A program made the translations under genes and the position numbers. Below, piece after piece: positions 1 to 37,496 of a stretch of DNA of 64,000 nt (the stretch's first letter is position 1; each line of letters starts with the position of its first letter). Source of the DNA: Petrolisthes cinctipes (taxonomy: Eukaryota; Arthropoda; Malacostraca; Decapoda; Porcellanidae); assembly GCA_033782935.1 (NCBI GenBank), contig JAWQEG010000003.1:2492501-2556500 (forward strand), read 5' to 3'. The notes under the pieces are model-generated. The model searched no databases. It was given only the letters and a program-made list of their open reading frames with translations, and was not told the origin of the DNA.

Positions 1-176
1 CAGAAGCGATCTGTACATGCCTACCCAGTGCTAGAATTTTTTCAAAAAATAGGCTCAAAACATGCTAAAAATCGATATTTTAAGTGTCCAATGTCGATAA
101 GTGCATGCATCATCTGTACCCGTTTATATCTCAAATTCAGTCTCAAAACACCCGAAAATTCGATATTTTGGGGTCC

Positions 177-323
177 CAGAAGTGATCTGTACATGCCTAC
201 TTAGTGCAAGAATATTTTCAAAATATAGGCCGAAAACATGCTAAAAATCGATATTTTAGGTGCCCAAAGTCGATATCTCAAATTCAGGCCCAAAACACCC
301 GAAAATTCGATATTTTTGGGTCA
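177..323 (+). repeat. Class S monomer exemplar (147 bp, 29-bp deletion)
   Basis: The unit reads gtcgatat directly into ctcaaattcaggccc. In full-length units these are separated by 29 bp beginning gtgcatgcat and ending gtttatat. The lost segment is bounded by atat on both sides, so loss between short direct repeats is the simplest explanation. Further copies are at 676-822, 1832-1978 and 2507-2653, and the class occurs across the window. It is usually followed by class 2. The 147-bp length equals nucleosome core DNA, which may be coincidence. Confidence 0.93.
212..226 (+). repeat. Perfect 7-bp dyad in an S monomer
   Basis: ATATTTT, a single C, then AAAATAT form a perfect inverted repeat at monomer positions about 36-50. 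Class 2 carries GTATTTT-C-AAAATAC at 359-373. The outermost pair has changed from A:T to G:C on both arms. Class 4 breaks the dyad with a G or T in the left arm. A role such as cruciform or protein binding is unproven. Confidence 0.7.
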
Positions 324-499
324 CAGAAGCGAACTGTACATGCCTACTCCGTGTTAGAGTATTTTCAAAATACAGGCCCAAAAGATACTGAAAATCGATC
401 TTTTAGGTGACCAAAGTCAATATGTGTATGCAACTTCTGCACCCGTTTATATCTCAAATTCAACCTCAAAACACCCGAAAATTCGATATTATTGGGTCC
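324..499 (+). repeat. Class 2 monomer exemplar (176 bp)
   Basis: Class 2 usually starts cagaagcgaactgtac instead of cagaagcgatctgtac. It also carries ctccgtgttagagtatttt, an acatactgaaaatc or agatactgaaaatc block and gatctttta in place of gatatttta. It typically follows an S monomer. Other copies are 823-998 and 1979-2155 (177 bp, with an extra A in cccaaaagtcg). Confidence 0.85.
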
Positions 500-1320
500 C
501 AGAAGCGATCTGTAGATGCCTACCCAGTGCTAGAATTTTTTCAAAATATAGGCTCAAAACATGCTAAAAATCTATATTTTAAGTGTCCAATGTCGATATG
601 TGCATGCAGCATCTGTACCCGTTTATATCTCAAATTCAGGCTCAAAACACCCAAAAATTCGATATTTTGGGGTCCCAGAAGTGATCTGTAAATGCCTACT
701 TAGTGCAAGAATATTTTCAAAATATAGGCCCAAAACATGCTAGAAATCGATATTTTAGGTGCCCAAAGTCGATATCTCAAATTCAGGCCCAAAACACCCG
801 AAAATTCGATATTTTTGAGTCCCAGAAGCGAACTGTACATGCCTACTCCGTGTTAGAGTATTTTCAAAATACAGGCCCAAAAGATACTGAAAATCGATCT
901 TTTAGGTGACCAAAGTCAATATGTGTATGCATCTTCTGCACCCGTTTATATCTCAAATTCAACCTCAAAACACCCGAAAAATCGATATTTTGGGGTCCCA
1001 TAAGCGATCTGTACATGCCTACTCAGTGCTAGAATGTTTTCAAAATATAGGCTCAAAACATGCTAAAAATCGATATTTTAAGTGTCCAAAGTCGATATGT
1101 GCATGCATCATTTGTACCCGTTTATATCTCAAATTTAGGCTCAAAACACCCAAAAATTCGATATTTTGGGGTCCCAAAAGTGAACTGTACATGCCTACTT
1201 AGTGCTAGAATATTATCAAAATATAGGCCCAAAACATGCTAAAATCCATATTTTAGGTGCCCAAAGTCGATATCTCGAATTAAGGCTCAAAACACCCGAA
1301 AATTCGATATTTTGGGGTCC

Positions 1321-1478
1321 CAGAAGCGATCTGTACATGCCTACTCAGATGCAGGACCAAAACATGATGAAAATCGATATTATAGGTGCCCAAAGTCAAC
1401 ATGTGTATGCATCTTCTGCACTCGTTTATATCCCAAATTCAACCTCAAAACACCCGAAAATTCGTTATTTTTGGGTCT
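1321..1478 (+). repeat. Class 7 monomer exemplar (158 bp, 18-bp deletion)
   Basis: The left half reads ctactcagatgcagg, so the dyad block between ctactcag and caggccc is missing. A class 6-like parent reading caagatgcagaccc (that form is seen near 39950 and 47250) would give this exact sequence by an 18-bp loss between two ag dinucleotides. The right half is usually gtcaacatgtgtatgc. I see this class near 1346, 4693, 5528, 6360, 8190, 11998, 13506, 15164, 16172 and 17506. A gatgaagg form is near 6861, 8700, 9858 and 11016. I see none after about 17.6 kb. Confidence 0.88.
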
Positions 1479-1654
1479 CAGAAGCGATCAGTACATGCCT
1501 ACTCCTAGTTAGAGTATTTTCAAAATACAGGCCCAAAACATGCAGAAAACCGATATTTTAGGTGCCAAAAGTCAATATGTGCATGCATCTTCTGTACCCG
1601 TTTATATCTCAAATTCGGGCTCAAAACACCCGAAAATTTGGTATTTTTGGGTCC
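1479..1654 (+). repeat. Class 5 monomer exemplar (176 bp)
   Basis: Class 5 has ctcctagttagagtatttt, a catgctgaaaatc or catgcagaaaacc block and ggtgcccaaagtcaatatg. It commonly ends with attcggtatttttgggtcc or a near variant. The next unit then starts tagaagcgat rather than cagaagcgat. Another copy is 12306-12481. Confidence 0.83.
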
Positions 1655-1831
1655 TAGAAGCGATCTGTATATCCCTATTCCTAGTTAGAATGTTTTCAAG
1701 ATACAGACCCAAAACATGCTCAAAATCGATATTTTAGGTGCCCAAAAGTCGATATGTGCATGCATCTTCTGTACCCGTTTATATCTCAAATTCAGGCTCA
1801 AAACAACCGAAAATTCGATATTTTGGGGTCC
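1655..1831 (+). repeat. Class 6 monomer exemplar (177 bp)
   Basis: Class 6 starts tagaagcgatctgtacatcc or a near variant. It has gttagaatgttttcaagata followed by cagacccaaaacatgctc. An extra A in cccaaaagtcg makes it 177 bp. A good second copy is 5002-5178. Class 6 commonly follows class 5 and precedes an S monomer or class 2. Confidence 0.83.
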
Positions 1832-2330
1832 CAGAATCGATCTGTACATGCCTACTCAGTGCTAGAATATTTTCAAAATATAGGCCGAAAACATGCTAAA
1901 AATCGATATTTTAGGTGCCCAAAGTCGATATCTCAAATTCAGGCCCAAAACACCCAAAAATTCGATATTTTGGGGTCCCAGAAGCGATCTGTACATGCCT
2001 ACTCCGTGTTAAAGTATTTTCAATATACAGGCCCATAACATACTGAAAATCGATCCTTTAGGTGCCCAAAAGTCGATATGTGGATGCATCTTCTGTACCC
2101 GTTTATATCTCAAATTCAGGCTTAAAACACCCGAAAATTCGATATTTTGGGGTTGCAGAAGCGATCTGTATTTGCCTACTCCGTGTTAGAGTATTTCAAA
2201 ATACAGGCTCAAAACAAGCTGAAAATCGATATTTTAGGTGACCAAAGTCAATATGTGTATGCATCATCTGCACCGGTTTATATCCCAAATTCAGGCTCAA
2301 AACACCCGAAAATTCGATTTTTTTGGGTCC

Positions 2331-2506
2331 CAGAAGCGATCTGTACATGTCTACTCAGTGCTAGAATGTTTTCAAAATATATGCTCAAAACATGCTAAAA
2401 ATCGATATTTTAAGTGTCCAAAGTCGATATGTGCATGCATCATCTGTACCCGTTTATATCTCAAATTCAGGCTCAAAACAAACGAAAATTCGATATTTTG
2501 GGGTCC
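2331..2506 (+). repeat. Class 4 monomer exemplar (176 bp)
   Basis: Class 4 is recognised by ctcagtgctagaatg or ctagaatttttt in the left half, aggctcaaaacatgct, the change to aagtgtcc in the middle, and gcatcatctgtacc in the right half. It is one of the commonest full-length classes and is normally followed by an S monomer beginning cagaagtgat. This copy has one private change in the right half (caaacg for cacccg). Confidence 0.85.
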
Positions 2507-3650
2507 CAGAAGTGATCTGTACATGCCTACTTAGTGCTAGAATATTATCAAAATATAGGCCCAAAACATGCTAAAAATTGATATTTTAGGTGCCCAAAGT
2601 CGATATCTCAAATTCAGGCCCAAAACACCCGAAAATTCGATATTTTTGGGTCACAGAAGCGAACTGTACATGCCTACTCCGTGTTAGAGTATTTTCAAAA
2701 TACAGGCCCAAAAGATACTGAAAATCGATCTTTTAGGTGACCAAAGTCAATATGTGTATGCAACTTCTGCACCCGTTTATATCTCAAATTCAACCTCAAA
2801 ACACCCGAAAATTCGATATTATTGGGTCCAAGAAGCGATCTGTACATGCCTACCCAGTGCTAGAATTTTTTCAAAATATAGGCTCAAAACATGCTAAAAA
2901 TCTATATTTTAAGTGTCCAATGTCGATATGTGCATGCAGCATCTGTACCCGTTTATATCTCAAATTCAGGCTCAAAACACCCAAAAATTCGATATTTTGG
3001 GGTCCCAGAAGTGATCTGTAAATGCCTACTTAGTGCAAGAATATTTTCAAAATATAGGCCCTAAACATGCTAGAAATCGATATTTTAGGTGCCCAAAGTC
3101 GATATCACAAATTCAGGCCCAAAACACCCGAAAATTCGATATTTTTGAGTCCCAGAAGCGAACTGTACATGCCTACTCCGTGTTAGAGTATTTTCAAAAT
3201 ACAGGCCCAAAAGATACTGAAAATCGATCTTTTAGGTGACCAAAGTCAATATGTGTATGCATCTTCTGCACCCGTTTATATCTCAAATTCAACCTCAAAA
3301 CACCCGAAAAATCGATATTTTGGGGTCCCATAAGCGATCTGTACATGCCTACTCAGTGCTAGAATGTTTTCAAAATATAGGCTCAAAACATGCTAAAAAT
3401 CGATATTTTAAGTGTCCAAAGTCGATATGTGCATGCATCATTTGTACCCGTTTATATCTCAAATTTAGGCTCAAAACACCCGAAAATTCGATATTTTGGG
3501 GTCCCAAAAGTGAACTGTACATGCCTACTTAGTGCTAGAATATTATCAAAATATAGGCCCAAAACATGCTAAAATCCATATTTTAGGTGCCCAAAGTCGA
3601 TATCTCGAATTCAGGCTCAAAACACCCGAAAATTCGATATTTTGGGATCC
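2507..3650 (+). repeat. Copy 2 of the 2330-bp-offset duplicated block
   Basis: This block repeats 177-1320 nearly base for base, with a few single-base differences such as ggccctaaac near 3060 and gatatcaca near 3105. It is followed at 3651 by two successive class 4 monomers (3651 onward and about 3827 onward), a local tandem duplication of one 176-bp unit. Confidence 0.85.
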
Positions 3651-6600
3651 CAGAAGCGATCTGTACATGCCTACTCAGTGCTAGAATTTTTTCAAAATAT
3701 AGGCTCAAAACATGCTAAAAATCGATATTTTAAGTGTCCAAAGTCGATATGTGCATGCATCATCTGTACCCGTTTATATCTCAAATTCAGGCTCAAAACA
3801 CCTGAAAATTTGATATTTTGGGGTCTCAGAAGCGATCTGTACATGCCTACTCAGTGCTAGAATTTTTTCAAAATATAGGCTCAAAACATACTAAAAATCG
3901 ATATTTTAAGTGTCCAAAGTCGATATGTGCATGCATCATCTGTACCCTTTTATATCTCAAATTCAGGCTCAAAACACCCGAAAATTCGATATTTTGGGGT
4001 CCGAGAAGCAATCTGTACATGCGTACTCCTAGTTAGAGTATTTTCAAAATACAGGCCCAAAACATGCTGAAAATCGATATTTTAGGTGCCCAAAGTCAAT
4101 ATGTGCATGCATCTTCTGTACCCGTTTATATCTCAAATTCAGGCTCAAAACACCCGAAAATTCGGTATTTTTGGGTCCTAGAAATGATCTGTACATCCCT
4201 ACTCCTAGTTAGAATGTTTTTAAGATACATGCTCAAAATCGATATTTTAGGTGCAAAAAACTCGATATGTGCTTGCATCTTCTGTACCCGTTTATATCTC
4301 AAATTCAGGCTCAAAACACCCGAAAATTCGATATTTTGGGGTCCCAGAAGTAATCTGTACATGCCTACTTAGTGCTAGAATATTTTTAAAATATAGGCCC
4401 AAAACATGCTAAAAATCTATATTTTTGGTGCCCAAAGTCGATATCTCAAATCCAGGCCCAAAACACCCGAAAATTCGATATTTTGGGGTCCCAGAAGCGA
4501 ACTGTACATGCCTACTCCGTGTTAGAGTATTTTCAAAATACAGGCCCAAAACATACTGAAAATCGATATTTTAGGTGCCCAAATGTCGATATTTGCATGC
4601 ATCTTCTATACCCGTTTATATCTCAAATTCAGGCTCCAAACACCCGAAAATTCGATGTTTTGGGGTCCCAGAAGCGATCTGTACATGCCTTCTCAGATGC
4701 AGACCCAAAATATGCTGAAAATCGATATTTTAGGTGCCCATAGTCAACATGTGTATGCATCTTCTGCACTCCTTTATATCCCAAATTCAACCTCAAAACA
4801 CCTGAAAATTCGATATTTTGGGGTCACAGAAGCGATCTGTACTTGCCTACTCCGTGTTAGAGTATTTTCAAAATACAGGTCCAAAACATGCAGAAAATCG
4901 ATATTTTAGGTGCCCAAAGTCAATATGTGCATGCATCTTCTGTACCCGTTTAGATCTGAAATTCGGGCTCAAAACACCGAAAATTTGGTATTTTTGGGTC
5001 CTAGAAGCGATCTGTACATCCCTATTCCTTGTTAGAATGTTTTCAAGATACAGACCCAAAACATGCTCAAAATCGATATTTTAGGTGCCCAAAAGTCGAT
5101 ATGTGCATGCTTCTTCTGTACCCGTTTATATCTCAAATTCAGGCTCAAAACACCCGAAAATTCGATATTTTGGGGTCCCAGAAGCGATCTGTACATGCCT
5201 ACTTAGTGCTAGAATATTTTCAAAATATAGGCCCAAAACATGCTAAAAATCGATATTTTAGGTGCCCAAAGTCGATATCTCAAATTCAGGCCCTAAACAC
5301 CCGAAAATTCGATATTTTGGGGTCCCAGAAGCGAACTGTACATGCCTACTCCGTGTTAGAGTATTTTCAAAATACAGGCCCAAAACATACTGAAAATCGA
5401 TCTTTTGGGTGCCCAAAAGTCTATATGTGCTTGCATCTACTGTACCCGTTTATATCTCAAATTCAGGCTCCAAACACCCGAAAATTCGATATTTTGTGGT
5501 CCCAGAAGCGATCTGTACATGCCTACTAAGATGCAGGCCCAAAACATGCTGAAAATCGATATTTTAGGTGACCAAAGTCAACATGTGTATGCATCTTCTG
5601 CACTCGTTTATATATCAAATTCAACCTCAAAACACCCGAAAATTCGATAATTTTGGGTCCAAGATGCGATCTGTACATGTCTAGTCAGTGCTATAATGTT
5701 TTCAAAATATTGGCTCAAAACATGCTAAAAATCGATATTTTAAGTGTCCAAAGTCGATATGTGTATGCATCTTCTGCACTCGTTTATATATCAAATTCAA
5801 CCTCAAAACACCCGAAAATTCGGTATTTTTGGGTCCTAGAAGCGATCTGTACATCCCTACTCCTAGTTAGATTGTTTTCAAGATACAGATCCAAAACATG
5901 CTAAATATCGATATTTTAGGTGCCCAAAAGTCGATATGTGCATGCATCTTCTGTACCCGTTTATATATCAAATTCAGGCTCAAAACACCCGAAAATTCGA
6001 TATTTTGGGGTCCCAGAAGTGATCTGTACATGCCTACTTTGTGCAAGAATATTTTCAAAATATAGGCCCAAAACATGCTAAAAATCGATATTTTCGGTGC
6101 CCAAAGTCGATATCTCATATTCAGGCCCAAAACACCAGAAAATTCGATATTTTGGGGTCCCAGGAGAGAACTGTACATGCCTACTCCGTGTTAGAGTATT
6201 TTCAAAAAACAGGCCGAAAACATATTGAAAATCGATCTTTTTGGTGCCCAAAAGTCGATATGTGCATGCATCTTCTGTACCCGTTTATATCTCAAATTCA
6301 GGCTCCAAACATCCGAAAATTCGATATTTTGGGGTCCCAGTAGCGATCTGTACATGCCTACTCAGATGCAGGCCCAAAACATGCTGAAACTCGATATTTT
6401 AGGTGCCCAAAGTCAACATATGTATGCATCTTGTGCACTCGTTTATATCTCAAATTCAACCTCAAAACACCCGAAAATTCGATAATTTTGAGTCCCAGAA
6501 GCGATCTGTATATGTCTAGTCAGTGCTAGAATGTTTTCAAAATATAGGCTCAAAACATGCTAAAAATCGATATTTTAAGTGTCCAAAGTCGATACCCGTT

Positions 6601-8680
6601 TATATCTCAAATTCAGGCTCAAAACACCCGAAAATTCGATATTTTTGGGTCCCAAAAGCGATCTGTACATGCCTACTCCTAGTTAGAGTATTTTCAAAAT
6701 ACAGGCCCAAAAGATGCTGAAAATCGATATTTTAGGTGCCCAAAGTCAATATGTGCAAGCATCTACTGTACCCGTTTATATCTCAAATTCTGGCTCCAAA
6801 CACCCGAAAATTTGATATTTTGGTGTCCCGGAAGCGATCTGTACATGCCTACTCAGATGAAGGCCAAAAACATGCTAAAAATCGATATATTTTAAGTGTC
6901 CAAAGTCGATATGTGCATGCATCATCTGTACCCGTTTATAACTCAAATTCAGGCTCAAAACACCTGAAAATTCGATATTTTGGGGTCCCAGAAGTGATCT
7001 GTACATGCCTACTTAGTGCTAGAATATTTTCAAAATATAGGCCCAAAACATGCTAAAAATCGATATTTTAGGTTCCCAAAGTCGATATCTCAAATTCAAG
7101 CCCAAAACACCCTAAAATTCGATATTTTGGGGTCCCAGAAGCGATCTGTACTTGTCTACTCCGTGTTAGAGTATTTACAAAATACAGGCCCAAAACATGC
7201 TGAAAATCGATATTTTAGGTGCCCAAAAGTCGATATGTGGATGCATCTTCTGTACCCGTTTATATCTCAAATTTAGGCTCAAAACACCAGAAAATTCGAT
7301 ATTTTGGGGTCCCAGAAACGATCTGTACTTGCTTACTCAGTGTTAGAGTTTTTACAAAATACAGGCCCAAAACAAGCTGAAAATCGATATTTTAGGTGAC
7401 CAAAGTCAATATGTGTATGCATCTTCTGCACCCGTTTATATCCCAAATTCAACCTCAAAACACCCGAAAATTCGATATTTGTGGGTCCCAGATGCGATCT
7501 GTACATGCCTACTCAGTGCTAGAATCTTTTCAAAATATAGGCACAAAACATGCTAAAATTCGATATTTTAAGTGTCCAAAGTCGATATGTGCATGCATCA
7601 TCTGTACTCGTTTATATCTCAAATTCAGGCTCAAAACACCCGAAAATTCGATATTTTGGGGTCCCAGAAGTGATCTGTAGATGCCTACTTAGTGCTAGAA
7701 TATTTTCAAAATATAGGCCCAAAACATGCTAAAAATCGATATTTTAGGTGCCCAATGTCGATATCTCAAATTCAGGCCCAAAACACCCGAAAATTCGATA
7801 TTTTGGGGTCCCAGAAGCGAACTGTACATGCCTACTTCGTGTTAGAGTATTTTCAAAATACAGGCCCAAAACATACTGAAAATCGATCTTTTGGGTGCCC
7901 AAAAGTCGATATGTGCATGCATCTTCTGTACCCGTTTATATCCCAAATTCAGGCTCAAAACACCCGAAAATTCAATATTTTTGGGTCCCAGAAGCGATCT
8001 GTACATGCCTACTCAGTGCTAGAATTTTTTCAAAATATATGCTCAAAACATGCTAAAAATCGATATTTTAAGTGTCCAAAGTCGATATGTGCATCCATCA
8101 TCTGTACCCGTTTATATCTCAAATTCAGGCTCAAAACACCCGAAAATTCGATATTTTGGGGTCCCAGAAGTGATCTTTACATGCCTACTCAGATGCAGGC
8201 CCAAAACATGCTGAAAATCGATATTTTAGGTGCCCAAAGTCAGCATGTGTATGAATCTTCTGCACTCGTTTATATATCAAATTCAACCTGAAAACACCCG
8301 AAAATTCGATAATTTTGGGTTCCAGATGCGATCTGTACATGTCTAGTCAGTGCTAGAATGTTTTTAAAATATTGGCTCAAAACATGCTAAAAATCGATAT
8401 TTTATGTGTCCAAAGTCGATATGTGCATGCATCTTCTGTACCCGTTTATATCTCAAATTCAGGCTCAAAACACCCGAAAATTCGGTATTTTTGGGTCCTA
8501 GAAGCGATCTGTACATCCCTACTCCTAGTTAGAGTATTTTCAAAATACAGGCCCAAAACATGCTGAAAATCGATATTTTAGGTGCCCAAAGTCAATATGT
8601 GCATGCATCTTCTGTACCCGTTTATATCTCAAATTCAGGCTCCAAACACCCGAAAATTCGATATTTTGGGGTCCCGGAAG
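3651..8680 (+). repeat. Mixed-class satellite with several class 7 units
   Basis: This stretch continues the array with classes 4, 5, 6, S, 2, 3 and 7 in a less regular order and no long near-identical duplication that I could find. It contains class 7 units near 4693, 5528, 6360, 6861 and 8190, and the unique 157-bp unit at 6496-6652. No non-satellite sequence is present. Confidence 0.8.
6496..6652 (+). repeat. 157-bp monomer with a 19-bp deletion
   Basis: The unit reads gtcgata straight into cccgtttatatctc, losing 19 bp (tgtgcatgcatcatctgta). Both deletion ends carry ta. The lost piece overlaps the 29-bp segment missing from class S, but both breakpoints differ, so this is an independent event. 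Confidence 0.85.
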
Positions 8681-11600
8681 CGATCTGTACATGCCTACTC
8701 AGATGAAGGCCCAAAACATGCTAAAAATCGATATTTTAAGAGTCCAAAGTCGATATGTGCATGCATCATCTGTACCCGTTTATATCTCAAATTCAGGCTC
8801 AAAACACCCGAAAATTCGATATTTTGGGGTCCCAGAAGTGATCTGTACATGCCTACTTAGTGCTAGAATATTTTCAAAATATAGGGCCAAAACATGCTAA
8901 AAATCGATATTTTAGGTTCCCAAAGTCGATATCTCAAATTCAGGCTCAAAACACCCGAAAATTCGATATTTTGGGGTCCCAGAAGCGATCTGTAGATGCC
9001 TACTCCGTGTTAGAGTATTTTCAAAATACAGGCCCAAAACATACTGAAAATCAATCTTTTAGGTGCCCAAAAGTCGATATGTGCATGCATCTTCTGTACC
9101 CGTTTATATCCCAAATTCAACCTCAAAACACCCGAAAATTCAATATTTTTGGGTCCCAGAAGCGATCTGTACATGCCTACTCAGTGCTAGAATTTTTTCA
9201 AAATATATGCTCAAAACATGCTAAAAATCGATATTTTAAGTGTCCAAAGTCGATATGTGCATCCATCATCTGTACCCGTTTATATCTCAAATTCAGGCTC
9301 AAAACACCCGAAAATTTGATATTTTGGGGTCCCGAAAGTGATCTTTACTTGCCTACTTAGTGCTGGATTATTTTCAAAATATAGGCCCAAAACATGCTAA
9401 AAATCGATATTTTAGGTTCCCAAAGTCGATATCTCAAATTCAAGCACAAAACACCCTAAAATTCGATATTTTGGGGTCCCAGAAGCGATCTGTACTTGCC
9501 TACTCCGTGTTAGAGTTTTTACAAAGTACAGGCCCAAAACATGCTGAAAATCGATATTTTAGGTGCCCAAAAGTCGATATGTGGATGCATCTTCTGTACC
9601 CGTTTATATCTCAAATTTAGGCTCAAAACACCCGAAAATTCGATATTTTGGGGTCCCAGAAGCGATCTGTACTTGCTTACTCCGTGTTAGAGTTTTTACA
9701 AAATACAGGCTCAAAACAAGCTGAAAATCGATATTTTAGGTGCCCAAAGTCAATATGTGCATGCATCTTCTGTACCCGTTTATATCTCAAATTCAGGCTC
9801 AAAACACCCGAAAATTTGATATTTTGGGGTCCCGGAAGCGATCTGTACATGCCTACTCAGATGAAGGCCCAAAACATGCTAAAAATCGATATTTTAAGAG
9901 TCCAAAGTCGATATGTGCATGCATCATCTGTACCCGTTTATATCTCAAATTCAGGCTCAAAACACCCGAAAATTCGATATTTTGGGGTCCCAGAAGTGAT
10001 CTGTACATGCCTACTTAGTGCTAGAATATTTTCAAAATATAGGGCCAAAACATGCTAAAAATCGATATTTTAGGTTCCCAAAGTCGATATCTCAAATTCA
10101 GGCTCAAAACACCCGAAAATTCGATATTTTGGGGTCCCAGAAGCGATCTGTAGTTGCCTACTCCGTGTTAGAGTATTTTCAAAATACAGGCCCAAAACAT
10201 ACTGAAAATCAATCTTTTAGGTGCCCAAAAGTCGATATGTGCATGCATCTTCTGTACCCGTTTATATCCCAAATTCAACCTCAAAACACCCGAAAATTCA
10301 ATATTTTTGGGTCCCAGAAGCGATCTGTACATGCCTACTCAGTGCTAGAATTTTTTCAAAATATATGCTCAAAACATGCTAAAAATCGATATTTTAAGTG
10401 TCCAAAGTCGATATGTGCATCCATCATCTGTACCCGTTTATATCTCAAATTCAGGCTCAAAACACCCGAAAATTTGATATTTTGGGGTCCCGAAAGTGAT
10501 CTTTACTTGCCTACTTAGTGCTGGATTATTTTCAAAATATAGGCCCAAAACATGCTAAAAATCGATATTTTAGGTTCCCAAAGTCGATATCTCAAATTCA
10601 AGCACAAAACACCCTAAAATTCGATATTTTGGGGTCCCAGAAGCGATCTGTACTTGCCTACTCCGTGTTAGAGTTTTTACAAAGTACAGGCCCAAAACAT
10701 GCTGAAAATCGATATTTTAGGTGCCCAAAAGTCGATATGTGGATGCATCTTCTGTACCCGTTTATATCTCAAATTTAGGCTCAAAACACCCGAAAATTCG
10801 ATATTTTGGGGTCCCAGAAGCGATCTGTACTTGCTTACTCCGTGTTAGAGTTTTTACAAAATACAGGCTCAAAACAAGCTGAAAATCGATATTTTAGGTG
10901 CCCAAAGTCAATATGTGCATGCATCTTCTGTACCCGTTTATATCTCAAATTCAGGCTCAAAACACCCGAAAATTTGATATTTTGGGGTCCCGGAAGCGAT
11001 CTGTACATGCCTACTCAGATGAAGGCCCAAAACATGCTAAAAATCGATATTTTAAGAGTCCAAAGTCGATATGTGCATGCATCATCTGTACCCGTTTATA
11101 TCTTAAATTCAGGCTCAAAACACCCGAAAATTCGATATTTTGGGGTCCCAGAAGTGATCTGTACATGCCTACTTAGTGCTAGAATATTTTCAAAATATAG
11201 GGCCAAAACATGCTAAAAATCGATATTTTAGGTTCCCAAAGTCGATATCACAAATTCAGGCTCAAAACACCCGAAAATTCGATATTTTGGGGTCCCAGAA
11301 GCGATCTGTAGTTGCCTACTCCGTGCTAGAGTATTTTCAAAATACAGGCCCAAAACATACTGAAAATCGATCTTTTAGGTGCCCAAAAGTCGATATGTGC
11401 ATGCATCTTCTGTACCCGTTTATATCCCAAATTCAACCTCAAAACCCCCGAAAATTCAATATTTTTGGGTCCCAGAAGCGATCTGTACATGCCTACTCAG
11501 TGCTAGAATTTTTTCAAAATATATGCTCAAAACATGCTAAAAATCGATATTTTAAGTGTCCAAAGTCGATATGTGCATCCATCATCTGTACCCGTTTATA

Positions 11601-11750
11601 TCTCAAATTCAGGCTCAAAACACCCGAAAATTTGATATTTTGGGGTCCCGGAAGTGATCTTTACATGCCTACTTAGTGCTGGATTATTTTTAAAATATAG
11701 GCCCAAAACATGCTAAAATCGATATTTTAGGTTCCCAAAGTCGATATCTC
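8680..11750 (+). repeat. 1158-bp seven-monomer HOR, about 2.65 tandem copies
   Basis: Identical landmarks recur at an offset of 1158 bp, for example 8860, 10018 and 11176, and 9360 and 10518. Shared private features are the gatgaaggccc class 7 form, aagagtcc, ggattatttt, ataggggccaaaac-like tracts, catccatcatc and acaaagtacagg. The length fits four full monomers, two S monomers and one class 7 unit with two single-base additions. The last copy diverges near 11.75 kb. Confidence 0.88.
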
Positions 11751-12611
11751 AAATTCAGGCCCAAAACACCCAAAAATTCGATATTTTGGGGTCCCAGAAG
11801 CGAACTGTACATGCCTACTCCGTGTTAGAGTATTTTCAAAATACAGGCCCAAAACATACTGAAAATCGATCTTTTAAGTGCCCAAAAGTCTATATGTGCA
11901 TGCATCTTCTGTACCCGTTTATATCTCAAATTCAGGCTCCAAACACCAGAAAATTCGATATTTTGTGGTCCCAGAAGCGATCTGTACATGCCTACTCAGA
12001 TGCAGGCCCAAAATATGCTGAAAATCGATATTTTAGGTGCCCAAAGTCAACATGTGTATGAATCTTCTGCACTCGTTTATATATCAAATTCAACCTCAAA
12101 ACAACCGAAAATTCGATATTTTTGGGTCCCAGATGCGATCTGTACATGTCTAGTCAGTGCTAGAATGTTTTCAAAATATTGGCTCAAAACATGCTAAAAA
12201 TCGATATTTTATGTGTCCAAAGTCGATATGTGCATGCATCTTCTGTACCCGTTTATATCTCAAATTCAGGCTCAAATCACCCGAAAATTCGATATTTTTG
12301 GGTCCCAAAAGCGATCTGTACATGCCTACTCCTAGTTAGAGTATTTTCAAAATACAGGCCCAAAACATGCTGAAAATCGATATTTTAGGTGCCCAAAGTC
12401 AATATGTGCATGTGTCTTCTGTACCCGTTTATATCTCAAATTCAGGCTCAAAACACCCGAAAATTCGGTATTTTTGGGTCCTAGAAGCGATCTGTACATC
12501 CCTACTCCTAGTTAGAGTATTTTCAAAATACAGGCCCAAAACATGCTGAAAATCGATATTTTAGGAGCCCAAAGTCAATATGTGCATGCATATTCTGTAC
12601 CCATTTATATC

Positions 12612-14269
12612 TCAAATTCAGGCTCAAAACACTCGAAAATTCGATATTTTGGGGTCCCAGAAGTGATCTGTACATGCCTACTTATTGCTAGAATATTTTC
12701 AAAATATAGGCCCAAAACATGCTAAAAATCGATATTTTAGGTTCCCAAAGTCGATATCTCAAATTCAGGCCCAAAACACCCGAAAATTCGATATTTTGGG
12801 GTCCCAGAAGCGAACTGTACATGCCTACTCCGTGTTAGAGTATTTTCAAAATACAGGCCCAAAACATACTGAAAATCGATCCCTTAGGTGCCCAAAAGTC
12901 GATATGTGCATGCATCTTCTGTACCCGTTTATATCACAAATTCAGGCTCAAAACACCCGAAAATTCGATATTTTGGGGTCCCAGAAGTGATCTGTACATG
13001 TCTACTTAGTGCTAGAATATTTTTAAAATATAGGCCCAAAACATGCTAAAAATCGATATTTTAGGTTCCCAAAGTCGATATCTCAAATTCAGGCCCAAAA
13101 CACCCGAAAATTCGATATTTTGGGGTCCCAAAAGCAATTTGTACTTGCCTACTCCGTGTTAGAGTTTTTACAAAATACAGGCCCAAAACAAGCTGAAAAT
13201 CGATATTTTAGGTGACCAAAGTCAATATGTGTATGCATCTTCTGCACCCGTTTACATCCCAAATTCATCCTCAAAACACCCAAAAATTCAATATTTTTGG
13301 TTCACAGATGCGATCTGTACATGCCTACTCCGTGTTAGAGTATTTTCAAAATACAGGCCCAAAACATACTGAAAATCGATCTTTTAGGTGCCCAAAAGTC
13401 GATATGTGCATGCATCTTCTGTACCCGTTTATATCTCAAATTCAGGAACCAAACACCCGAAAATTCGAGATTTTGGGGTCCCAGAAGCGATCTGTACATG
13501 CCTACTCAGATGCAGGCCCAAAACATGCTGAAAACCGATATTTTAGGTGCCCAAAGTCATTATGTGTATGAATCTTCTGCACCCGATTATATCCCAAATT
13601 CAACCTTTAAAACACCCGAAAATTCGATATTTTTGGGTCCCAGAAGCGATCTGTACATGCCTACTCTGTGCTAGAATGTTTTCAAAATATAGGCTCAAAA
13701 CATGCTAAAAATCGATATTTTAAGTGTCCAAAGTCGATATGTGCATGCATCTTCTGTACCCGTTTATTTCTCAAATTCAGGCGCAAAACACTTGAAAATT
13801 CGGTATTTTTGGTTCCTAGAAGCGATCTGTACATCCCGACCCCTAGTTAGAATGTTTTCAAGATACAGACCCAAAACATGCTCAAAATCGATATTTTGGG
13901 TGCCCAAAAGTCGATATGTGCATGCATCTTCTGTACCCGTTTATATCTCAAGTTCAGGCTCAAAACATCCGAAAATTCGATATTTGGGGGTCCCAGAAGC
14001 GATCTGTACATGCCTACTCGGTGCAAGAATATTTTCAAAATATAGGCCCAAAACATGCTAAAAATCGATATTTTAGGTGCCCAAAGTCGATATCTCAAAT
14101 TCAGGCCCAAAACACCCAGAAATTCGATATTTTGGGGTCCCAGAAGCGATCTGTACATGCCTACTCCGTGTTAGAGTATTTTCAAAATACAGGCCCAAAA
14201 CATGCTGAAAATCGATATTTTAGGTGACCAAAGTCAATATGTGTATGCATTTTCTGCACCTTTTATATC
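12612..14269 (+). repeat. 1658-bp ten-monomer HOR, copy 1
   Basis: This copy contains three S monomers, one class 7 derivative (13482-13640) and six full-length monomers. It repeats directly adjacent at an offset of 1658 bp. Differences I could find are single bases, for example cttattgct/cttagtgct, cttctgtac/cttatgtac, gaaaaccg/gaaaatcg and ggcgcaaa/ggcgtaaa. This is the most recent duplication I can see in the window. Confidence 0.9.
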
Positions 14270-15927
14270 CCAAATTCAGGCTCAAAACACTCGAAAATTC
14301 GATATTTTGGGGTCCCAGAAGTGATCTGTACATGCCTACTTAGTGCTAGAATATTTTCAAAATATAGGCCCAAAACATGCTAAAAATCGATATTTTAGGT
14401 TCCCAAAGTCGATATCTCAAATTCAGGCCCAAAACACCCGAAAATTCGATATTTTGGGGTCCCAGAAGCGAACTGTACATGCCTACTCCGTGTTAGAGTA
14501 TTTTCAAAATACAGGCCCAAAACATACTGAAAATCGATCCCTTAGGTGCCCAAAAGTCGATATGTGCATGCATCTTATGTACCCGTTTATATCACAAATT
14601 CAGGCTCAAAACACCCGAAAATTCGATATTTTGGGGTCCCAGAAGTGATCTGTACATGTCTACTTAGTGCTAGAATATTTTTAAAATATAGGCCCAAAAC
14701 ATGCTAAAAATCGATATTTTAGGTTCCCAAAGTCGATATCTCAAATTCAGGCCCAAAACACCCGAAAATTCGATATTTTGGGGTCCCAAAAGCAATTTGT
14801 ACTTGCCTACTCCGTGTTAGAGTTTTTACAAAATACAGGCCCAAAACAAGCTGAAAATCGATATTTTAGGTGACCAAAGTCAATATGTGTATGCATCTTC
14901 TGCACCCGTTTACATCCCAAATTCATCCTCAAAACACCCAAAAATTCAATATTTTTGGTTCACAGATGCGATCTGTACATGCCTACTCCGTGTTAGAGTA
15001 TTTTCAAAATACAGGCCCAAAACATACTGAAAATCGATCTTTTAGGTGCCCAAAAGTCGATATGTGCATGCATCTTCTGTACCCGTTTATATCTCAAATT
15101 CAGGAACCAAACACCCGAAAATTCGAGATTTTGGGGTCCCAGAAGCGATCTGTACATGCCTACTCAGATGCAGGCCCAAAACATGCTGAAAATCGATATT
15201 TTAGGTGCCCAAAGTCATTATGTGTATGAATCTTCTGCACCCGATTATATCCCAAATTCAACCTTTAAAACACCCGAAAATTCGATATTTTTGGGTCCCA
15301 GAAGCGATCTGTACATGCCTACTCTGTGCTAGAATGTTTTCAAAATATAGGCTCAAAACATGCTAAAAATCGATATTTTAAGTGTCCAAAGTCGATATGT
15401 GCATGCATCTTCTGTACCCGTTTATTTCTCAAATTCAGGCGTAAAACACTTGAAAATTCGGTATTTTTGGTTCCTAGAAGCGATCTGTACATCCCGACCC
15501 CTAGTTAGAATGTTTTCAAGATACAGACCCAAAACATGCTCAAAATCGATATTTTGGGTGCCCAAAAGTCGATATGTGCATGCATCTTCTGTACCCGTTT
15601 ATATCTCAAGTTCAGGCTCAAAACATCCGAAAATTCGATATTTGGGGGTCCCAGAAGCGATCTGTACATGCCTACTCGGTGCAAGAATATTTTCAAAATA
15701 TAGGCCCAAAACATGCTAAAAATCGATATTTTAGGTGCCCAAAGTCGATATCTCAAATTCAGGCCCAAAACACCCAGAAATTCGATATTTTGGGGTCCCA
15801 GAAGCGATCTGTACATGCCTACTCCGTGTTAGAGTATTTTCAAAATACAGGCCCAAAACATGCTGAAAATCGATATTTTAGGTGACCAAAGTCAATATGT
15901 GTATGCATTTTCTGCACCTTTTATATC
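14270..15927 (+). repeat. 1658-bp ten-monomer HOR, copy 2
   Basis: This is the tandem partner of 12612-14269 and shares its rare variants (aggaaccaaac, ttcgagatttt, caacctttaaaac, ccgacccctag, tatttggggg). The junction near 14270 joins a class 3-like tail (ccttttatatcccaaattca) to the class 5 tail that opens the block, inside a monomer and in correct phase. Confidence 0.9.
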
Positions 15928-18250
15928 CCAAATTCAACCTCAAAACACCCGAAAATTCGATATTTTTGGGTCCAAGAAGCAATCTGTACATGCCTACTCA
16001 GTGCTAGAATGTTTTCAAAATATAGGCTCAAAACATGCTAAAAATCGATATTTTAAGTGTCCAAAATCGATATGTGCATGCATCATCTGTACTCGTTTAT
16101 ATCTCAAATTCAGGCTCAAAACACCCGAAAATTCGATATTTTGGGGTCCCAGAAGCAAAGTGTACAGCTTACTCAGATGCAGGCCCAAAACATGCTGAAA
16201 ATCGATATTTTAGGTGCCCAAAGTCAACATGTGTATGCATCTTCTGCACTCGTTTATATCTCAAATTCAACCTCAAAACACCCGAAAATTCGATAATTTT
16301 GGGTCCAAGAAGCAATCTGTACATGCCTACTCCTAGTTAGAGTATTTTCAAAATACAGGCCCAAAACATGTTGAAAATCGATATTTTAGGTGCCCAAAGT
16401 CAATATGAGCATGCATCTTCTGTACCCGTTTATATCTCAAATTCAGGCTCAAAACACCCGAAAATTCGTATTTTTGGGGTCCTAGAAGCGATCTGTACAT
16501 CCGTACTCCTAGTTTGAATGTTTTCAAGATACAGACCCAAAACATGCTCAAAATCGATATTTATTTGCCCAAAAGTCGATATGTGCATGCATCTTCTGTA
16601 CCCGTTTATATCTCAAATTCAGGCTCAAAACACCCGAAAATTCGATATTTTGGGGTCCCAGAAGCGATCTGTACATGACTACTCAGTGCAAGAATATTTT
16701 CAAAATATAGGCCCAAAACATGCTAAAAATCGATATTTTAGGTGCCCAAAGTCGATATCTCAAATTCAGGCGTAAAACACCCAAAAATTTGATATTTTGG
16801 GGTCCCAGAAGCGATCTGTACATGTCTACTCCTTGTTATAGTATTTTCAAAATATAAGCCCAAAACAAGCTGAAAATCGATATTTTAGGTGACCAAAGTC
16901 AATATGTGTATGCATCTTCTGCACCCGTTTATATCCCAAATTCAATCTCAAAACACCCGAAAATTCGATATTTTTGGGTCCCAGAAGCGATCTGTACATG
17001 CCTACTCAGTGCTAGAATGTTTTCAAAATATAGGCTTAAAACATGCTAAAAATCGATATTAAAGTGTCCAAAGTCGATATGTGCATGCATCATCTGTACC
17101 CGTTTATATCTCAAATTCAGGCTCAAAAAACCCGAATATTCGATATTTTGGGGTCCCAGAAGTGATCTGTACATGCCTACTTAGTGCTAGAATATTTTCA
17201 AAATATAGGCCCAAAACATGCTAAAAATCGATATTTTAAGTGCCCAAAGTCGATATCTGAAATTCAGGCCCAAAACACCCGTAAGTTCGATATTTTCGGG
17301 TCCCAGAAGCGAACTGTACATGCCTACTCCGTGTTAGAGTATTTTCAAAATACAGGCCCAAAACATACTTAAAATCGATCTTTTAGGTGCCCAAAAGTTG
17401 ATATGTGCATGCATCTTCTGTACCCGTTTATATCTGAAATTCAGGCTCAAAACACCCGAAAATTCGATATTTTGGGGTCCCAGAAGCGATCTGTACATGC
17501 CTACTCAGATGCAGGCCCAAAACATACTGAAAATCGATATTTTAGGTGCCCAAAGTCAACATGTGTATGCATCTTCAGCACTCGTTTATATCTCAAATTC
17601 AACCTCAAAAAACCCAAAAATTCGATCATTCTGGGTCCCAGAACCGATCTGTACATGTTTAGTCAGTGCTAGAATGTTTTCAAAATATAGGCTCAAAACA
17701 TGCTAAAAATCGATATTTTAAGTGTCCAAAGTCGATATGTGCATGCATCTTGTGTACCCGTTTATATCTCAAATTCAGGCTCAAAATACACGTAAATTCG
17801 ATATTTTTGGGTCCCAGAAGCGATCTGTACATGCCTACTCCTAGTTAGAGTATTTTCAAAATACAGGCCCAAAACATGCTGAAAATCGATATTTTAGGTG
17901 CCCAAAGTCAATATGTGCATGCATCTTCTGTACCCGTTTATATCTCAAATTCAGGCTCAAAACACCCGAAAATTCGGTATTTTTGGGTCCTAGAAGCGAT
18001 CTGTACATCCCTACTCCTAGTTAGAATGTTTTCAAGATACAGACATAAAACATGCTCAAAATCGATATTTTAGGTGCCCAAAAGTCGATATATGCATGTA
18101 TCTTCTGTACCCGTTTATATCTCAAATTCAGGCTTAAAACACCCAAAAATTCGATATTTTGTGGTCCCAGAAGCGATCTGTACATGCCTACTCAATGCTA
18201 AAATATTTTCAAAATATAGGCCCAAAACATGCTAAAAATCGATATTTTAG
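15928..18250 (+). repeat. Mixed-class satellite, right end of domain I
   Basis: Regular monomers follow with class 7 units near 16172 and 17506, the last class 7 units I can see in the window. A near match to a CENP-B box lies at 17285-17301. No unique sequence is present. Confidence 0.8.
17285..17301 (+). other. CENP-B-box-like variant (8 of 9 core bases)
   Basis: TTCG, seven bases, then CGGG match the spacing of the mammalian CENP-B box (nTTCGnnnnAnnCGGGn). The single required central A is a T here. Most monomers have GGGG at this place. Similar CGGG variants lie at 24631-24647 and near 26985, 33578 and 34605. Binding is not implied, since the match can arise from one G-to-C change in the consensus. 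Confidence 0.3.
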
Positions 18251-19100
18251 GTGCCCAAAGTCGATATCTCAAATTCAGGTCCAAAACACCCAAAAACTCG
18301 ATATTTTGGGGTCCCAGAAGCGATCTGTACATGCCTACTCCGTGTTAAGAGTATTTTCAATATGCAGGCCCAAAACATACTGAAAATCGATCTTTTATGT
18401 GCCCAAAAGTCGATATGTGGATGCATCTTCTGTACCCGTTTATATCTCAAATTCAGGCTCAAAACACCCGAAAACTCGATATTTTGGGGTCCCAGAAGCG
18501 ATCTGTACTTGCCTACTCCGTGTTAGAGTATTTTCAAAAAACAGGCCCAAAACAAGCTGAAAATAGATATTTTATGTGACCAAAGTCAATATGTGTATGC
18601 ATCTTCTGCACCCGTTTATATCCCAAATTCAACCTCAAAACACCCGAAAATTCGATATTTTTGGGTCCCAGAAGCGATCTGTACATGCCTACTTAGTGCT
18701 AGAATGTTTTCAAAATATAGGCTTGAAACATGCTAAAAATCGATATTTTAAGTGTCCAAAGTCGATATGTGCATGCATCATCTGTACCCGTTGATATCTC
18801 AAATTCAGGCTCAAAACACCCGAAAATTCGATATTTTGGTGTCCCAGAAGCGATCTGTACTTTCCTACTACGTGTCAGAGTATTTTCAAAATACAGGCGA
18901 AAAAAAACAAGCTGAAAATCGATATTTTAGGTGACCAAAGTCAATATGTGTATGTATCTTCTGCACCCGTTTATATCCCAAATTCAACCTCAGAACACCC
19001 GAAAATTCGATATTTTTGGGTCCCAGAAGCAATCTGTACATGCCTACTTAGTGCTAGAATGTTTTCAAAATATAGGCTCAAAATATGCTAAAAATCGATA
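18250..19100 (+). repeat. 1179-bp-offset duplication, copy 1
   Basis: This block matches 19429-20280 at an offset of 1179 bp. Shared rare features are the gttaagagtattttcaat unit with an extra A, atgcagg or atgcagcc, aaatagatattttatgtgacc, and the A8 run. The offset fits a seven-monomer block of mainly full-length and S units with small insertions. Confidence 0.8.
18900..18907 (+). repeat. A8 homopolymer expansion inside a class 3 unit
   Basis: The normal ggcgcaaaacaag or ggcccaaaacaag block is ggcg, eight A, then caag here, a net gain of three bases. The same expansion is seen near 20080, 22996, 25350, 30436 and 31946 and nowhere outside about 18.9-32 kb. It therefore marks one family of copies spread within this domain. 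Confidence 0.8.
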
Positions 19101-19170
19101 TTTTAGGTGCCCAAAGTCGATATCTCAAATTCAGGCCCAAAACACTCGAAAATTCGATATTTTGGGGTCC
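19024..19170 (+). repeat. Chimeric 147-bp monomer (class 4 left, class S right)
   Basis: The left part has the class 4 signature (ctagaatgtttt, ataggctc). From about 19095 the unit becomes class S, with aggtgccc and the 29-bp deletion joint gatatctc. The switch lies in the shared run ctaaaaatcgatatttta, which suggests exchange or conversion inside the monomer. Confidence 0.8.
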
Positions 19171-19428
19171 CAGGAGCGAACTGTACATGCCTACTCCGTG
19201 TTAGAGTATTTTCAAAATACAGGCCCAAAACATGCTTAAAATCGATATTTTAGGTGCCCAAAAGTCGATATGTGCATGCATCTTCTGTACCCATTTTAAT
19301 CTCAAATTCAGGCTTAAAACACCCGAAAATTCGATATTTTGGGGTCCCAGAAGCGATCTGTACATGTCTACTCAGTGCTAGAATATTTTCAAAATATAGG
19401 CCCAAAACATGCTAAAAATCAAAATTTA

Positions 19429-20280
19429 AATGCCCAAAGTCGATATCTCAAATTCAGGCCCAAAACACCCAAAAGTTCGATATTTTGGGGTCCCAGAAGC
19501 GATCTGTACATGCTTACTCCGTGTTAAGAGTATTTTCAATATGCAGCCCCAAAACATACTGAAAATCGATCTTTTATGTGCCCATAAGTCGATATGTGGA
19601 TGCATCTTCTGTACCCGTTTATATCTCAAATTCAGGCTTAAAACACCGGAAAATTCGATATTTTGGGGTCCCAGAAGCGATCTGTACTTGCCTACTCCGT
19701 GTTAGAGTATTTTCAAAAAACAGGCCCAAAACAAGCTGAAAATAGATATTTTATGTGACCAAAGTCAATATGTGTATGCATCTTCTGCACCCGTTTATAT
19801 CCCAAATTCAACCTCAAAACACCCGAAAATTCGATATTTTTGGGTCCCAGAAGCAATCTGTACATGCCTACTTAGTGCTAGAATGTTTTCAAAATATAGG
19901 CTCAAAATATGCTAAAAATCGATATTTTAAGTGTCCAAAGTCGATATGTGCATGCATCATCTGTACCCGTTGATATCTCAAATTCAGGCTCAAAACACCC
20001 GAAAATTCGATAATTTGGGGTCCCAGAAGCGATCTGTACTTTCCTACTCCGTGTTAGAGTATTTTCAAAATACAGGCGAAAAAAAACAAGCTGAAAATCG
20101 ATATTTTAGGTGACCAAAGTCAATATGTGTATGCATCTTCTGCACCCGTTTATATCCCAAGTTCAACCTCAGAACACCCGAAGATTCGATATTTTTGGGT
20201 CCCAGAAGCAATCTGTACATGCCTACTTAGTGCTAGAATGTTTTCAAAATATAGGCTCAAAATATGCTAAAAATCGATAT
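19429..20280 (+). repeat. 1179-bp-offset duplication, copy 2
   Basis: This is the partner of 18250-19100. It diverges at about 20280, where this copy stays class 4 (aagtgtcc) while copy 1 switches to class S (aggtgccc). The duplication end therefore coincides with the chimeric switch at 19024-19170. Confidence 0.8.
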
Positions 20281-20349
20281 TTTAAGTGTCCAAAGTCGAT
20301 ATGTGCATGCATCATCTGTACCCGTTTATATCTCAAAATCAGGCTCAAA

Positions 20350-21180
20350 ACACCAGAAAATTCGATATTTTTGGGTCCCAGAAGTGATCTGTACATGCCT
20401 ACTTAGTGCTAGAATATTTTCAAAATATAGGCCCAAAACATGCTAAAAATCGATATTTTAGGTGCCCAAAGTCGATATCTCAAATTCAGGCCCAAAACAC
20501 TCGAAAATTCGATATTTTGGGGTCCCAGGAGCGAACTGTACATGCCTACTCCGTGTTAGAGTATTTTCAAAATACAGGCCCAAAACATACTGAAAATCGA
20601 TCTTTTAGGTGCCCAAAAGTTGAAATGTGCATGCATCTTCTGTACCCGTTTATATCTCTAATTCAGGCTCAAAACACCCATAAATTCGATATTTTTGGGT
20701 CCCAGAAGCGATCTGTACATGCCTACTCCTAGGTAGAGTATTTTCAAAATACAGGCCCAAAACATGCTGAAAATCGATATTTTAGGTGCCCAAAGTCAAT
20801 ATGTGAATGCATCTTCTGTACCCGTTTATATCTCAAATTCAGGTTCAAAACACCCGAAAATTCGGTATTTTTGGGTCCTAGAAGCGATCTGTACATCCCT
20901 ACTCTTAGTTAGAATGTTTTCAAGATACAGGCCCAAAACATGCTTAAAATCGATATTTTAGGTGCCCAAAAGTCGATATGTGCATGCATCTTCTGTACCC
21001 TTTTACATCTCAAATTCAGGCTTAAAACACCCTAAAATTCGATATTTTGGGGTCCCAGAAGCGATCTGTACTTGCCTACTCCGTATTAGAGTATTTTCAA
21101 AATTCAGGCCCAAAACAAGCTGAAAATCGATATTTTAGGTGACCAAAGTAAATATGTGTATGCATCTTCTGCATCCGTTT
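20350..21180 (+). repeat. Block repeated 8152 bp downstream
   Basis: This segment recurs at about 28502-29332. Shared private variants include gttgaaatg, gtgaatgcatcttc, caggttcaaaac, ctcttagttag and catgcttaaaatc. The copies are separated by other satellite, not tandem, so this is a dispersed duplication within the array. Confidence 0.75.
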
Positions 21181-23529: not shown

Positions 23530-24858
23530 CCCAAAAGTCGATATGTGCATGCATCTTCTGTACCCATTTTTATCTCAAATTCAGGCTTAAAACACCCGAA
23601 AATTCGATATTTTGGGGTCCCAGAAGCGATCTTTACATGCCTACTCAGTGCTAGAATATTTTCAAAATATAGGCCCAAAACATGCTAAAAATCAAAATTT
23701 AAGTGCCCAAAGTCGATATCTCAAATTCAGGCCCAAAACACCCAAAAGTTCGATATTTTGGGGTCCCAGAAGCGATCTGTACATGCTTACTCCGTGTTAA
23801 GAGTATTTTCAATATTCAGGCCCAAAACATACTGAAAATCGATCTTTTAGGTGCCCAAAAGTCGATATGTGGATGCATCTTCTGTACCCGTTTATATCTC
23901 AAATTCAGGCTTAAAACACCCGAAAATTCGATATTTTGGGGTCCCAGAAGCGATCTGTACTTGCCTACTCCGTGTTAGAGTATTTTCAAAATTCAGGCCC
24001 AAAACAAGCTGAAAATCGATATTTTAGGTGACCAAAGTAAATATGTGTATGCATCTTCTGCATCTGTTTATATCCCAAATTCAAGCTCAAAACACCCGAA
24101 AATTCAATTTTTTTGGGTCCCAGAAGCGATCTGTACATGCCTACTTAGTGCTAGAATGTTTTCAAAAATATAGGCTCAAAACATGCTAAAAATCGATATT
24201 TTAAGTGTCCAAAGTCGATATGTGCATGCATCATCTGTTTCCGTTTATATCTCAAATTCAGGCTCAAAACACCCGAAAATTCGATATTTTGGGGTCCCAG
24301 AAGCGATCTGTACTTGCCTACTCCGTGTTAGAGTAATTTCAAAATACAGGCGCAAAACAAGCTGAAAATCGATATTTTAGGTGACCAAAGTCAATATGTG
24401 TATGCATCTTCTGCACCCGTTTATATCCCAAATTCAACCTCAAAACACCCGAAAATTCGATATTTTTGGGTCCCAGAAGCGATATGTACATGCCTACTTA
24501 GTGCTAGAATTTTTTCAAAATATAGGCTCAAAACATGCTAAAAATCGATGTTTTAAGTGTCCAAAGTCGATATGTGCAAGCATCATCTGTACCCGTTTAT
24601 ATCTCAAATTCAGGCTCAAAACACCCGAAAATTCGATATTTTCGGGTCCCAGAAGTGATCTGTACATGCCTACTTAGTGCTAGAATATTTTCAAAATATA
24701 GGCCCAAAGCATGCTAAAAATCGATATTTTAGGTGCCCAAAGTCGATATCTCAAATTCAGGCCCAAAACACCCGAAAATTCGATATTTTGGGGGCCCAGA
24801 AGCGAACTGTACATGCCTACTCCGTGTTAGAGTATTTTCAAAATACAGGCCCAAAACA
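23530..24858 (+). repeat. 2354-bp-offset block, copy 1
   Basis: This block matches 25884-27211 (offset 2353-2354) and about 32476 onward. It contains the variant S unit with aaaaatcaaaatttaagtg (one base shorter), the gttaagag unit, a class 3 unit with attcaggcccaaaac, and ttcgatattttcggg. Confidence 0.8.
24631..24647 (+). other. CENP-B-box-like variant in domain II
   Basis: This has the same arrangement as at 17285: TTCG, seven bases, CGGG, with T at the central position that is A in the box. It sits at the end of a class 4 unit and is copied with its block to near 26985, 33578 and 34605. Confidence 0.3.
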
Positions 24859-25099
24859 TGCTGAAAATCGATATTTTAGGTGCCCAAAGTCAATATGTGA
24901 ATGCATCTTCTGTACCCGTTTATATCTCGAATTCAGGTTCAAAACACCCTAAAATTCGGTATTTTTGGGTCCTAGAAGCGATCTATACATCCCTACTCCT
25001 AGTTAGAATGTTTTCAAGATACAGGCCCAAAACATGATCAAAATCGATATTTTAGGTGCCCAAAAGACGATATGTGCATACATCTTCTGTACCCTTTTA

Positions 25100-25770: not shown

Positions 25771-25883
25771 AACCTTAAATTCGATATTTTTGTGTCCCAG
25801 AAGCGATCTGTACATGCCTACTCCTAGTTAGAGTATTTTCAAAATACAGGCCCAAAACATGCTGAAAATCGATATTTTAGGTG

Positions 25884-37491: not shown

Positions 37492-37496
37492 GGCAT
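37492..37496 (+). other. Unique 5-bp insertion (ggcat)
   Basis: The invariant ctgtacatgcctac block is interrupted to read ctgtac, ggcat, atgcctac. I saw no other copy, so it is younger than the surrounding duplications. The exact placement is ambiguous by a base or two because the insert resembles the adjacent atgcc. Confidence 0.8.

What the first reader, a model, noticed from the sequence alone, without database searches (positions are those of the whole stretch)
2331..2506. The 176-bp monomer is itself a dimer of an 88-bp ancestral unit
Consensus positions 1-88 and 89-176 align without a gap. By hand I count 58 of 88 identities. Matching blocks are cgat-tgt-catgc (7-20 with 95-108), ggctcaaaaca (52-62 with 140-150) and cgatatttt (73-81 with 161-169), all at exactly 88 bp. 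Two of the three CpG pairs are also 88 bp apart (7/95 and 73/161). This gives a three-level history: 88-bp unit, 176-bp dimer, multi-monomer HOR.
Basis: seen in the sequence. Interest (0 to 1): 0.75.

Follow-up and report, generated by a model that had tools for sequence, protein, structure and literature searches.

The report
Porcelain-crab satellite built from two halves
The repeated DNA in this stretch, which makes up roughly a third of the porcelain crab Petrolisthes cinctipes genome assembly, is an old doubling of an 88-letter unit, and copies exist in which the two halves have since recombined to give 88- and 264-letter units.

Summary
The window is one satellite: 380 monomer rows, 93.1% mean identity to a computed 176-bp consensus. 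The consensus halves match at 60 of 88 positions without a gap; 20,000 dinucleotide shuffles reached at most 40. Lag 88 is the second-highest autocorrelation peak. In a tree of 90 halves A and B separate with support 1.0, and none of 2,873 scored halves is ambiguous. The dimer predates the array.

The 'HOR' level is only partly right here: blocks are duplicated at many lags, without one period.

Beyond the finding: the genome is the Petrolisthes cinctipes assembly. The satellite fills an estimated 461-509 Mb, 31-34% of it; the published table gives satellites under 1 Mb and 806 Mb unclassified. A/B chimeric junctions in 88-bp register exist: 1,182 A-to-B at three blocks and 187 B-to-A at one, against 1 and 0 for two out-of-register controls. 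All 19 junction places that I fetched carry 88-type or 264/265-bp units. The 88-bp units seen are therefore derived, not surviving ancestors. Known route, apparently undescribed family.

The parts
1..64000 (+). Continuous satellite array, 380 monomer rows (378 interior): 271 without a gap of 5 bp or more, 83 with a 29-bp deletion in the B half (about 147 bp), 14 with an 18-bp deletion in the A half (about 158 bp), 10 others
   Evidence: wraparound alignment, 93.06% identity to consensus; gap tally
   Evidence: halves 56 of 88 identical in this copy
2331..2418 (+). half A (consensus columns 1-88)
2419..2506 (+). half B (consensus columns 89-176)
2337..2350 (+). shared block 1, A copy (columns 7-20); A-to-B chimeric junctions at this block: 909 in the genome
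2425..2438 (+). shared block 1, B copy (columns 95-108)
2382..2392 (+). shared block 2, A copy (columns 52-62); junctions at this block: 102 A-to-B, 187 B-to-A
2470..2480 (+). shared block 2, B copy (columns 140-150)
2403..2411 (+). shared block 3, A copy (columns 73-81); A-to-B junctions at this block: 171
2491..2499 (+). shared block 3, B copy (columns 161-169)
2507..2653 (+). example of the 147-bp form: 29-bp deletion inside half B
   Evidence: sequence, gap tally
177..3650 (+). block duplication: 7 monomers from 177 repeated from 2507 (lag 14 monomers, 2,330 bp; 99.1% base identity over 177-1300)
8675..11648 (+). block duplication, lag 7 monomers (1,158 bp; 99.7% over 8675-10480)
12658..15973 (+). 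block duplication, lag 10 monomers (1,658 bp; 99.6% over 12658-14300)

Best explanation
The 176-bp monomer of this Petrolisthes cinctipes satellite is a fixed heterodimer of an older 88-bp unit. Two neighbouring 88-bp units, A and B, became the unit of amplification and diverged to 68% identity. All later spread copied the AB pair, so every A half is closer to other A halves than to any B half. Inferred mechanism: unequal exchange or slippage in an 88-bp array made the dimer; exchange in 176-bp register, plus duplication of multi-monomer blocks, spread it. Rare pairing one half out of register still joins A to B inside the blocks that they share. That leaves 88-bp A/B chimeras and, reciprocally, 264/265-bp one-and-a-half units, some of which were then multiplied within local higher-order repeats. 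Shown: half homology, A/B separation, in-register chimeras of both kinds, 3.5-mer HORs. Inferred: the ancestral 88-bp array, the exchange mechanism, and the time order of events outside the window.
For: 60 of 88 identity, beyond every shuffle; shift 88 alone stands out. Autocorrelation peak at 88. Tree of 45 A and 45 B halves: A/B split with support 1.0, mean A-B path 0.65 against 0.16 (A-A) and 0.11 (B-B); 0 of 2,873 halves ambiguous. A-B identity inside one monomer (0.613, 272 monomers) equals that between monomers (0.612), so the dimer is older than the array and the halves are not being homogenised. Junction counts at up to 2 mismatches: A-to-B 102 (block 2), 171 (block 3), 909 (block 1); B-to-A 187 (block 2); reversed-pattern controls 0 throughout; out-of-register joins 1 and 0. 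Fetched places: A-to-B 15 of 15 hold units of 70-89 bp, including two in tandem at C62 (L033); B-to-A 4 of 4 hold 264/265-bp units. 617- and 616-bp repeats of 88/89 + 3 x 176 bp at 99.3% and 98.0% identity.
Against: No array made only of uniform 88-bp units was found; the longest run seen is two. All 88-bp units read are chimeras, so the ancestor is inferred from similarity alone. No related species could be searched. The fetched places were picked by me from the listings, not at random, and many junctions are copies of few events (block 1 is dominated by one variant). 0 of 380 rows in the window itself are 88 or 264 bp long. Rearrangements out of 88-bp register are far commoner: the 29-bp and 18-bp deletions and a roughly 47-bp duplication in L015.
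Confidence: 0.9

Rival explanations
1. Chance resemblance of two AT-rich halves.
For: The sequence is 62% A+T and has short-period words such as TTTT and AAAA.
Against: 0 of 20,000 dinucleotide and 0 of 20,000 mononucleotide shuffles come near; no other shift of the consensus does.
Confidence: 0.01
2. Convergence or constraint: two half-nucleosome or protein-binding sites 88 bp apart are kept alike by selection, with or without a dimer origin.
For: Matching positions lie in blocks; 176 bp is near nucleosome-repeat length (general knowledge).
Against: Columns that match between halves are not significantly less variable among monomers than columns that differ (mean minor-allele frequency 0.065 and 0.080, Mann-Whitney P 0.43; 0.28 without CpG). 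Minor alleles do not lean towards the other half's letter (0.360; 78 of 174 other offsets are as high or higher). No folding signal (z -0.09).
Confidence: 0.07
3. The 88-bp units of today are survivors of the ancestral 88-bp array.
For: They have the predicted length and occur on many contigs (listing).
Against: In all 15 A-to-B places fetched the unit is A-like on the left and B-like on the right with the switch in a shared block; reciprocal 264/265-bp products exist in 4 of 4 B-to-A places fetched.
Confidence: 0.05
4. The dimer was born as a pair of already diverged 88-bp units picked out of an older array (HOR birth), rather than by doubling one unit that diverged afterwards.
For: Equally compatible with the data; alpha-satellite dimers of two units that differ by up to about 30% are described (PMC8122249, passages).
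Against: Nothing here separates the two.
Confidence: 0.45

Closest known systems
Drosophila Responder (Rsp) satellite
   Same: fixed dimer of two related units (two 120-bp monomers sharing 84%; PMC8122249, passages)
   Different: no sequence relation tested; the units here are 88 bp and 68% identical, and the satellite is about a third of the assembly
Primate alpha-satellite dimers (SF1-2) and HORs
   Same: heterodimer as amplification unit, further multi-unit blocks (PMC8122249, passages)
   Different: there each half is nucleosome-sized (about 170 bp); here the whole dimer is. No CENP-B box or centromere function was tested
Hordeum chilense HchH1Sat02-92 and its 46-bp relatives
   Same: longer satellite read as a doubling of a shorter ancestral one that still exists (PMC11447152, passages)
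   Different: there the short form survives as its own satellite; here no such array was found

Membership tests
Satellite DNA (long head-to-tail arrays) | long tandem arrays of one family | tested here: met
   whole 64-kb window; 18 of 18 sampled 10-kb stretches from 1.5 Mb to the end of contig C3 are satellite, apart from the last bin of L016; L001 is satellite only from about 4.8 kb
Dimeric satellite | two homologous halves in each unit, A and B separate clades | tested here: met
Dimeric satellite | shorter ancestral unit known as its own array in the same or a related species | tested here: inconclusive
   88-bp units exist but are chimeras, at most two in tandem; no related species could be searched
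Regular higher-order repeat | one multi-monomer period through the array | tested here: not met
   in this window: 16 different block lags, best lag mean 0.897 vs 0.888. Locally met at C115 and C230
Centromeric satellite | bound by CenH3/CENP-A | not testable with these tools
   needs ChIP or CUT&RUN
Olive satellites (O-51, O-80, O-86, O-178, O-179, O-218) | matches the published primers | tested here: not met
   11 of the 12 primers of PMC9009077 tested; none above the range of its shuffles

The most novel reading that the evidence does not exclude
Unit length in this satellite is a two-way state rather than a one-way ladder: the 176-bp dimer keeps shedding 88-bp chimeras and 264-bp one-and-a-half units by exchange between halves that are only 68% identical. 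Some of these are adopted into new HORs (88 + 3 x 176), so a satellite that fills about a third of a genome carries a countable record of how satellite periods change.
Probability: 0.3. Interest if true: 0.6.

Novelty: new member of a known kind. Interest (0 to 1): 0.42.

Why it matters
The dimer itself follows a well-known route. What is useful is the scale. With an estimated 2.7-3.0 million monomers in a public HiFi-based assembly, exchanges between halves can be counted, which turns 'how do satellites change their period' into a measurable question. It also suggests that a large part of the 806 Mb called 'unclassified' in P. cinctipes, and perhaps of the 0.57-Gb size difference from P. manimaculis, may be one satellite (the latter is inference; P. 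manimaculis DNA was not searched).

Tried and rejected
Deeper sub-period inside 88 bp: best circular self-match of A 33 of 88 (P 0.26), of B 31 of 88 (P 0.58): none. Inverted-repeat folding of the monomer: z -0.09. Ongoing conversion between halves in the window: none seen. Exact-word search of viral contigs and of genome contigs: 0 matches each. Satellite ORF on the minus strand as a bait for relatives: 11 candidates, none significant. Plus-strand ORF: one protein, Pcinc_006891; no P. manimaculis protein, which is weak evidence because spurious gene models are rare. First anchor-based cutting of monomers found only 75 anchors and was replaced by wraparound alignment. DNA search of the monomer in its own genome found nothing because its words are too common: no evidence. 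Literature searches on 88/176-bp dimers and on dimerisation in crustacean satellites (0 papers) gave no description of this family. Recalled, from no call: hermit-crab cryptic satellites said to be about 30% of a genome; my search for it found 0 papers.

Full report
What was claimed.

Check. I aligned the whole window by wraparound dynamic programming to an iterated consensus: 380 monomer rows, 93.06% identity, lengths mostly 176-177, 146-148 and 158. Shuffles give a mean of 24.6 and at most 40 (dinucleotide) or 42 (mononucleotide) in 20,000 each. Among shifts 1-88 of the circular consensus, 88 gives 120 of 176 and the next best 61. The raw-sequence autocorrelation at 88 is 0.503, second to 0.518 at 176.

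Age of the dimer. Halves were taken from the window and from 18 further 10-kb stretches of contig C3 (first and last row of each stretch dropped; locus L001 not used): 1,437 A and 1,436 B halves with at least 45 aligned letters, none ambiguous; a tree of 45 A and 45 B halves drawn from 967 near-full monomers has the A/B split with support 1.0. This test scores aligned parts, so a chimeric unit counts as an A part and a B part. Jukes-Cantor distance between halves is 0.41, between monomers 0.12. A-B identity is the same within a monomer (0.613) and between monomers (0.612), and minor alleles do not lean towards the other half. So the window shows no homogenisation between halves. No sub-period inside 88 bp was found.

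HOR level. In the window, runs of 5-11 monomers are copied at 97% or more at 16 lags; 205 of 380 monomers lie in such blocks; no single lag stands out. Some copies are near-perfect over more than a kilobase (99.1-99.7%). I call this overlapping block duplication, not one HOR.

Whose genome. A jockey-like reverse transcriptase in L004 is 84-87% identical to Petrolisthes cinctipes and 86% to P. manimaculis proteins. A satellite-derived ORF of the window hits one protein only, Pcinc_006891. That protein is 100% identical over its 179 aa at C505 of the window's genome, and C505 has the very length, 2,763,820 bp, recorded for its contig. The published assembly has 9,391 contigs and 1.49 Gb; G000 has 9,385 and 1.484 Gb.

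How much. A 28-mer of half A at up to 2 mismatches occurs 1,177,522 + 1,199,371 times; 299 times in the window and 857 times in 180 kb of sampled array, which scales to 509 and 499 Mb. A 28-mer of half B occurs 1,148,191 + 1,157,383 times and 320 times in the window, which scales to 461 Mb (my arithmetic). That is 31-34% of the assembly. The calibration rests on contig C3 alone, and uncollapsed haplotypes could inflate it. The genome paper (passages seen) lists satellites below 1 Mb and 806 Mb unclassified; a search for papers with both 'Petrolisthes cinctipes' and 'satellite DNA' found none.

Exchange between halves. One sampled monomer of 1,059 outside the window was an 88-bp A/B chimera (L018 8454-8541), and one was a one-and-a-half unit built on a 147-bp form (L006, 236 bp). 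I then counted junction words in the genome at up to 2 mismatches: A-to-B 102 at block 2, 171 at block 3, 909 at block 1; B-to-A 187 at block 2. Reversed words gave 0 each time. Two out-of-register joins gave 1 and 0. In the 1,439-monomer sample the block-2 words find only the two real cases, while the normal A and B words at the same stringency find 517 and 944, so the counts are lower bounds by roughly a factor of two. I fetched 19 places chosen from the listings. 15 A-to-B places hold 88-bp-type units: 77-88 bp in L033-L039, with two in tandem in L033; 88, 88, 88 and 70 bp in L045-L048, the last with the 18-bp deletion; 87-89 bp in L049-L052, one cut by the end of the stretch. 4 B-to-A places hold 264 or 265 bp (L041-L044). 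In L049 and L050 the 88/89-bp unit sits in a regular 617/616-bp repeat with three full monomers, 99.3% and 98.0% alike between copies. Many junctions are copies of few events.

Reading. The dimer is an old, fixed heterodimer. The halves have drifted to 68% identity, yet exchange one half out of register still happens, inside the shared blocks and in the 88-bp register. Unequal crossing-over explains both products; slippage could too. The ancestral 88-bp array is inferred, not seen.

Known parallels. Rsp (2 x 120 bp, 84%) and alpha-satellite dimers (PMC8122249, passages), barley 46 to 92 bp (PMC11447152, passages), and the general statement that satellites keep motifs of shorter ancestral monomers after duplication and divergence (PMC5615363, passages). 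This is a new member of a known kind; the abundance and the countable exchanges are what is of interest.

Noticed in passing
window 1-64000; L002, L006-L022: Recurrent internal deletions: 29 bp in half B between ATAT repeats (83 of 378 interior monomers), 18 bp in half A (14 of 378), and combinations elsewhere: 129 bp (29+18) 4 of 1,059 and 138 bp (29+10) 12 of 1,059 sampled monomers.
   Followed up: partly
G000 contig C3, 1.324 Mb to 5.536 Mb: Array spans most of the right-hand 4.2 Mb of the contig: 18 of 18 sampled 10-kb stretches from 1.5 Mb on are satellite (L016 leaves it in its last bin), 3 of the 18 in reverse orientation; L001 shows an interruption before about 2,487,300.
   Followed up: partly
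C505:503525-504061; e.g. C820:172018-237768: Annotated protein Pcinc_006891 is a fusion of a repeated ORF (residues 1-131) with satellite sequence (from about 130). The ORF recurs on many contigs, in places every 5.9 kb in tandem.
   Followed up: no
L049-L052: The block-1 chimeras read lie among monomers that look more divergent from the C3 consensus, perhaps a separate subfamily that favours HOR formation.
   Followed up: no
L001:1211-1847: A GC-richer tract with 22-118-bp tandem repeats rich in CCTAGG/AGGTAGC words sits in the non-satellite stretch next to the array.
   Followed up: no
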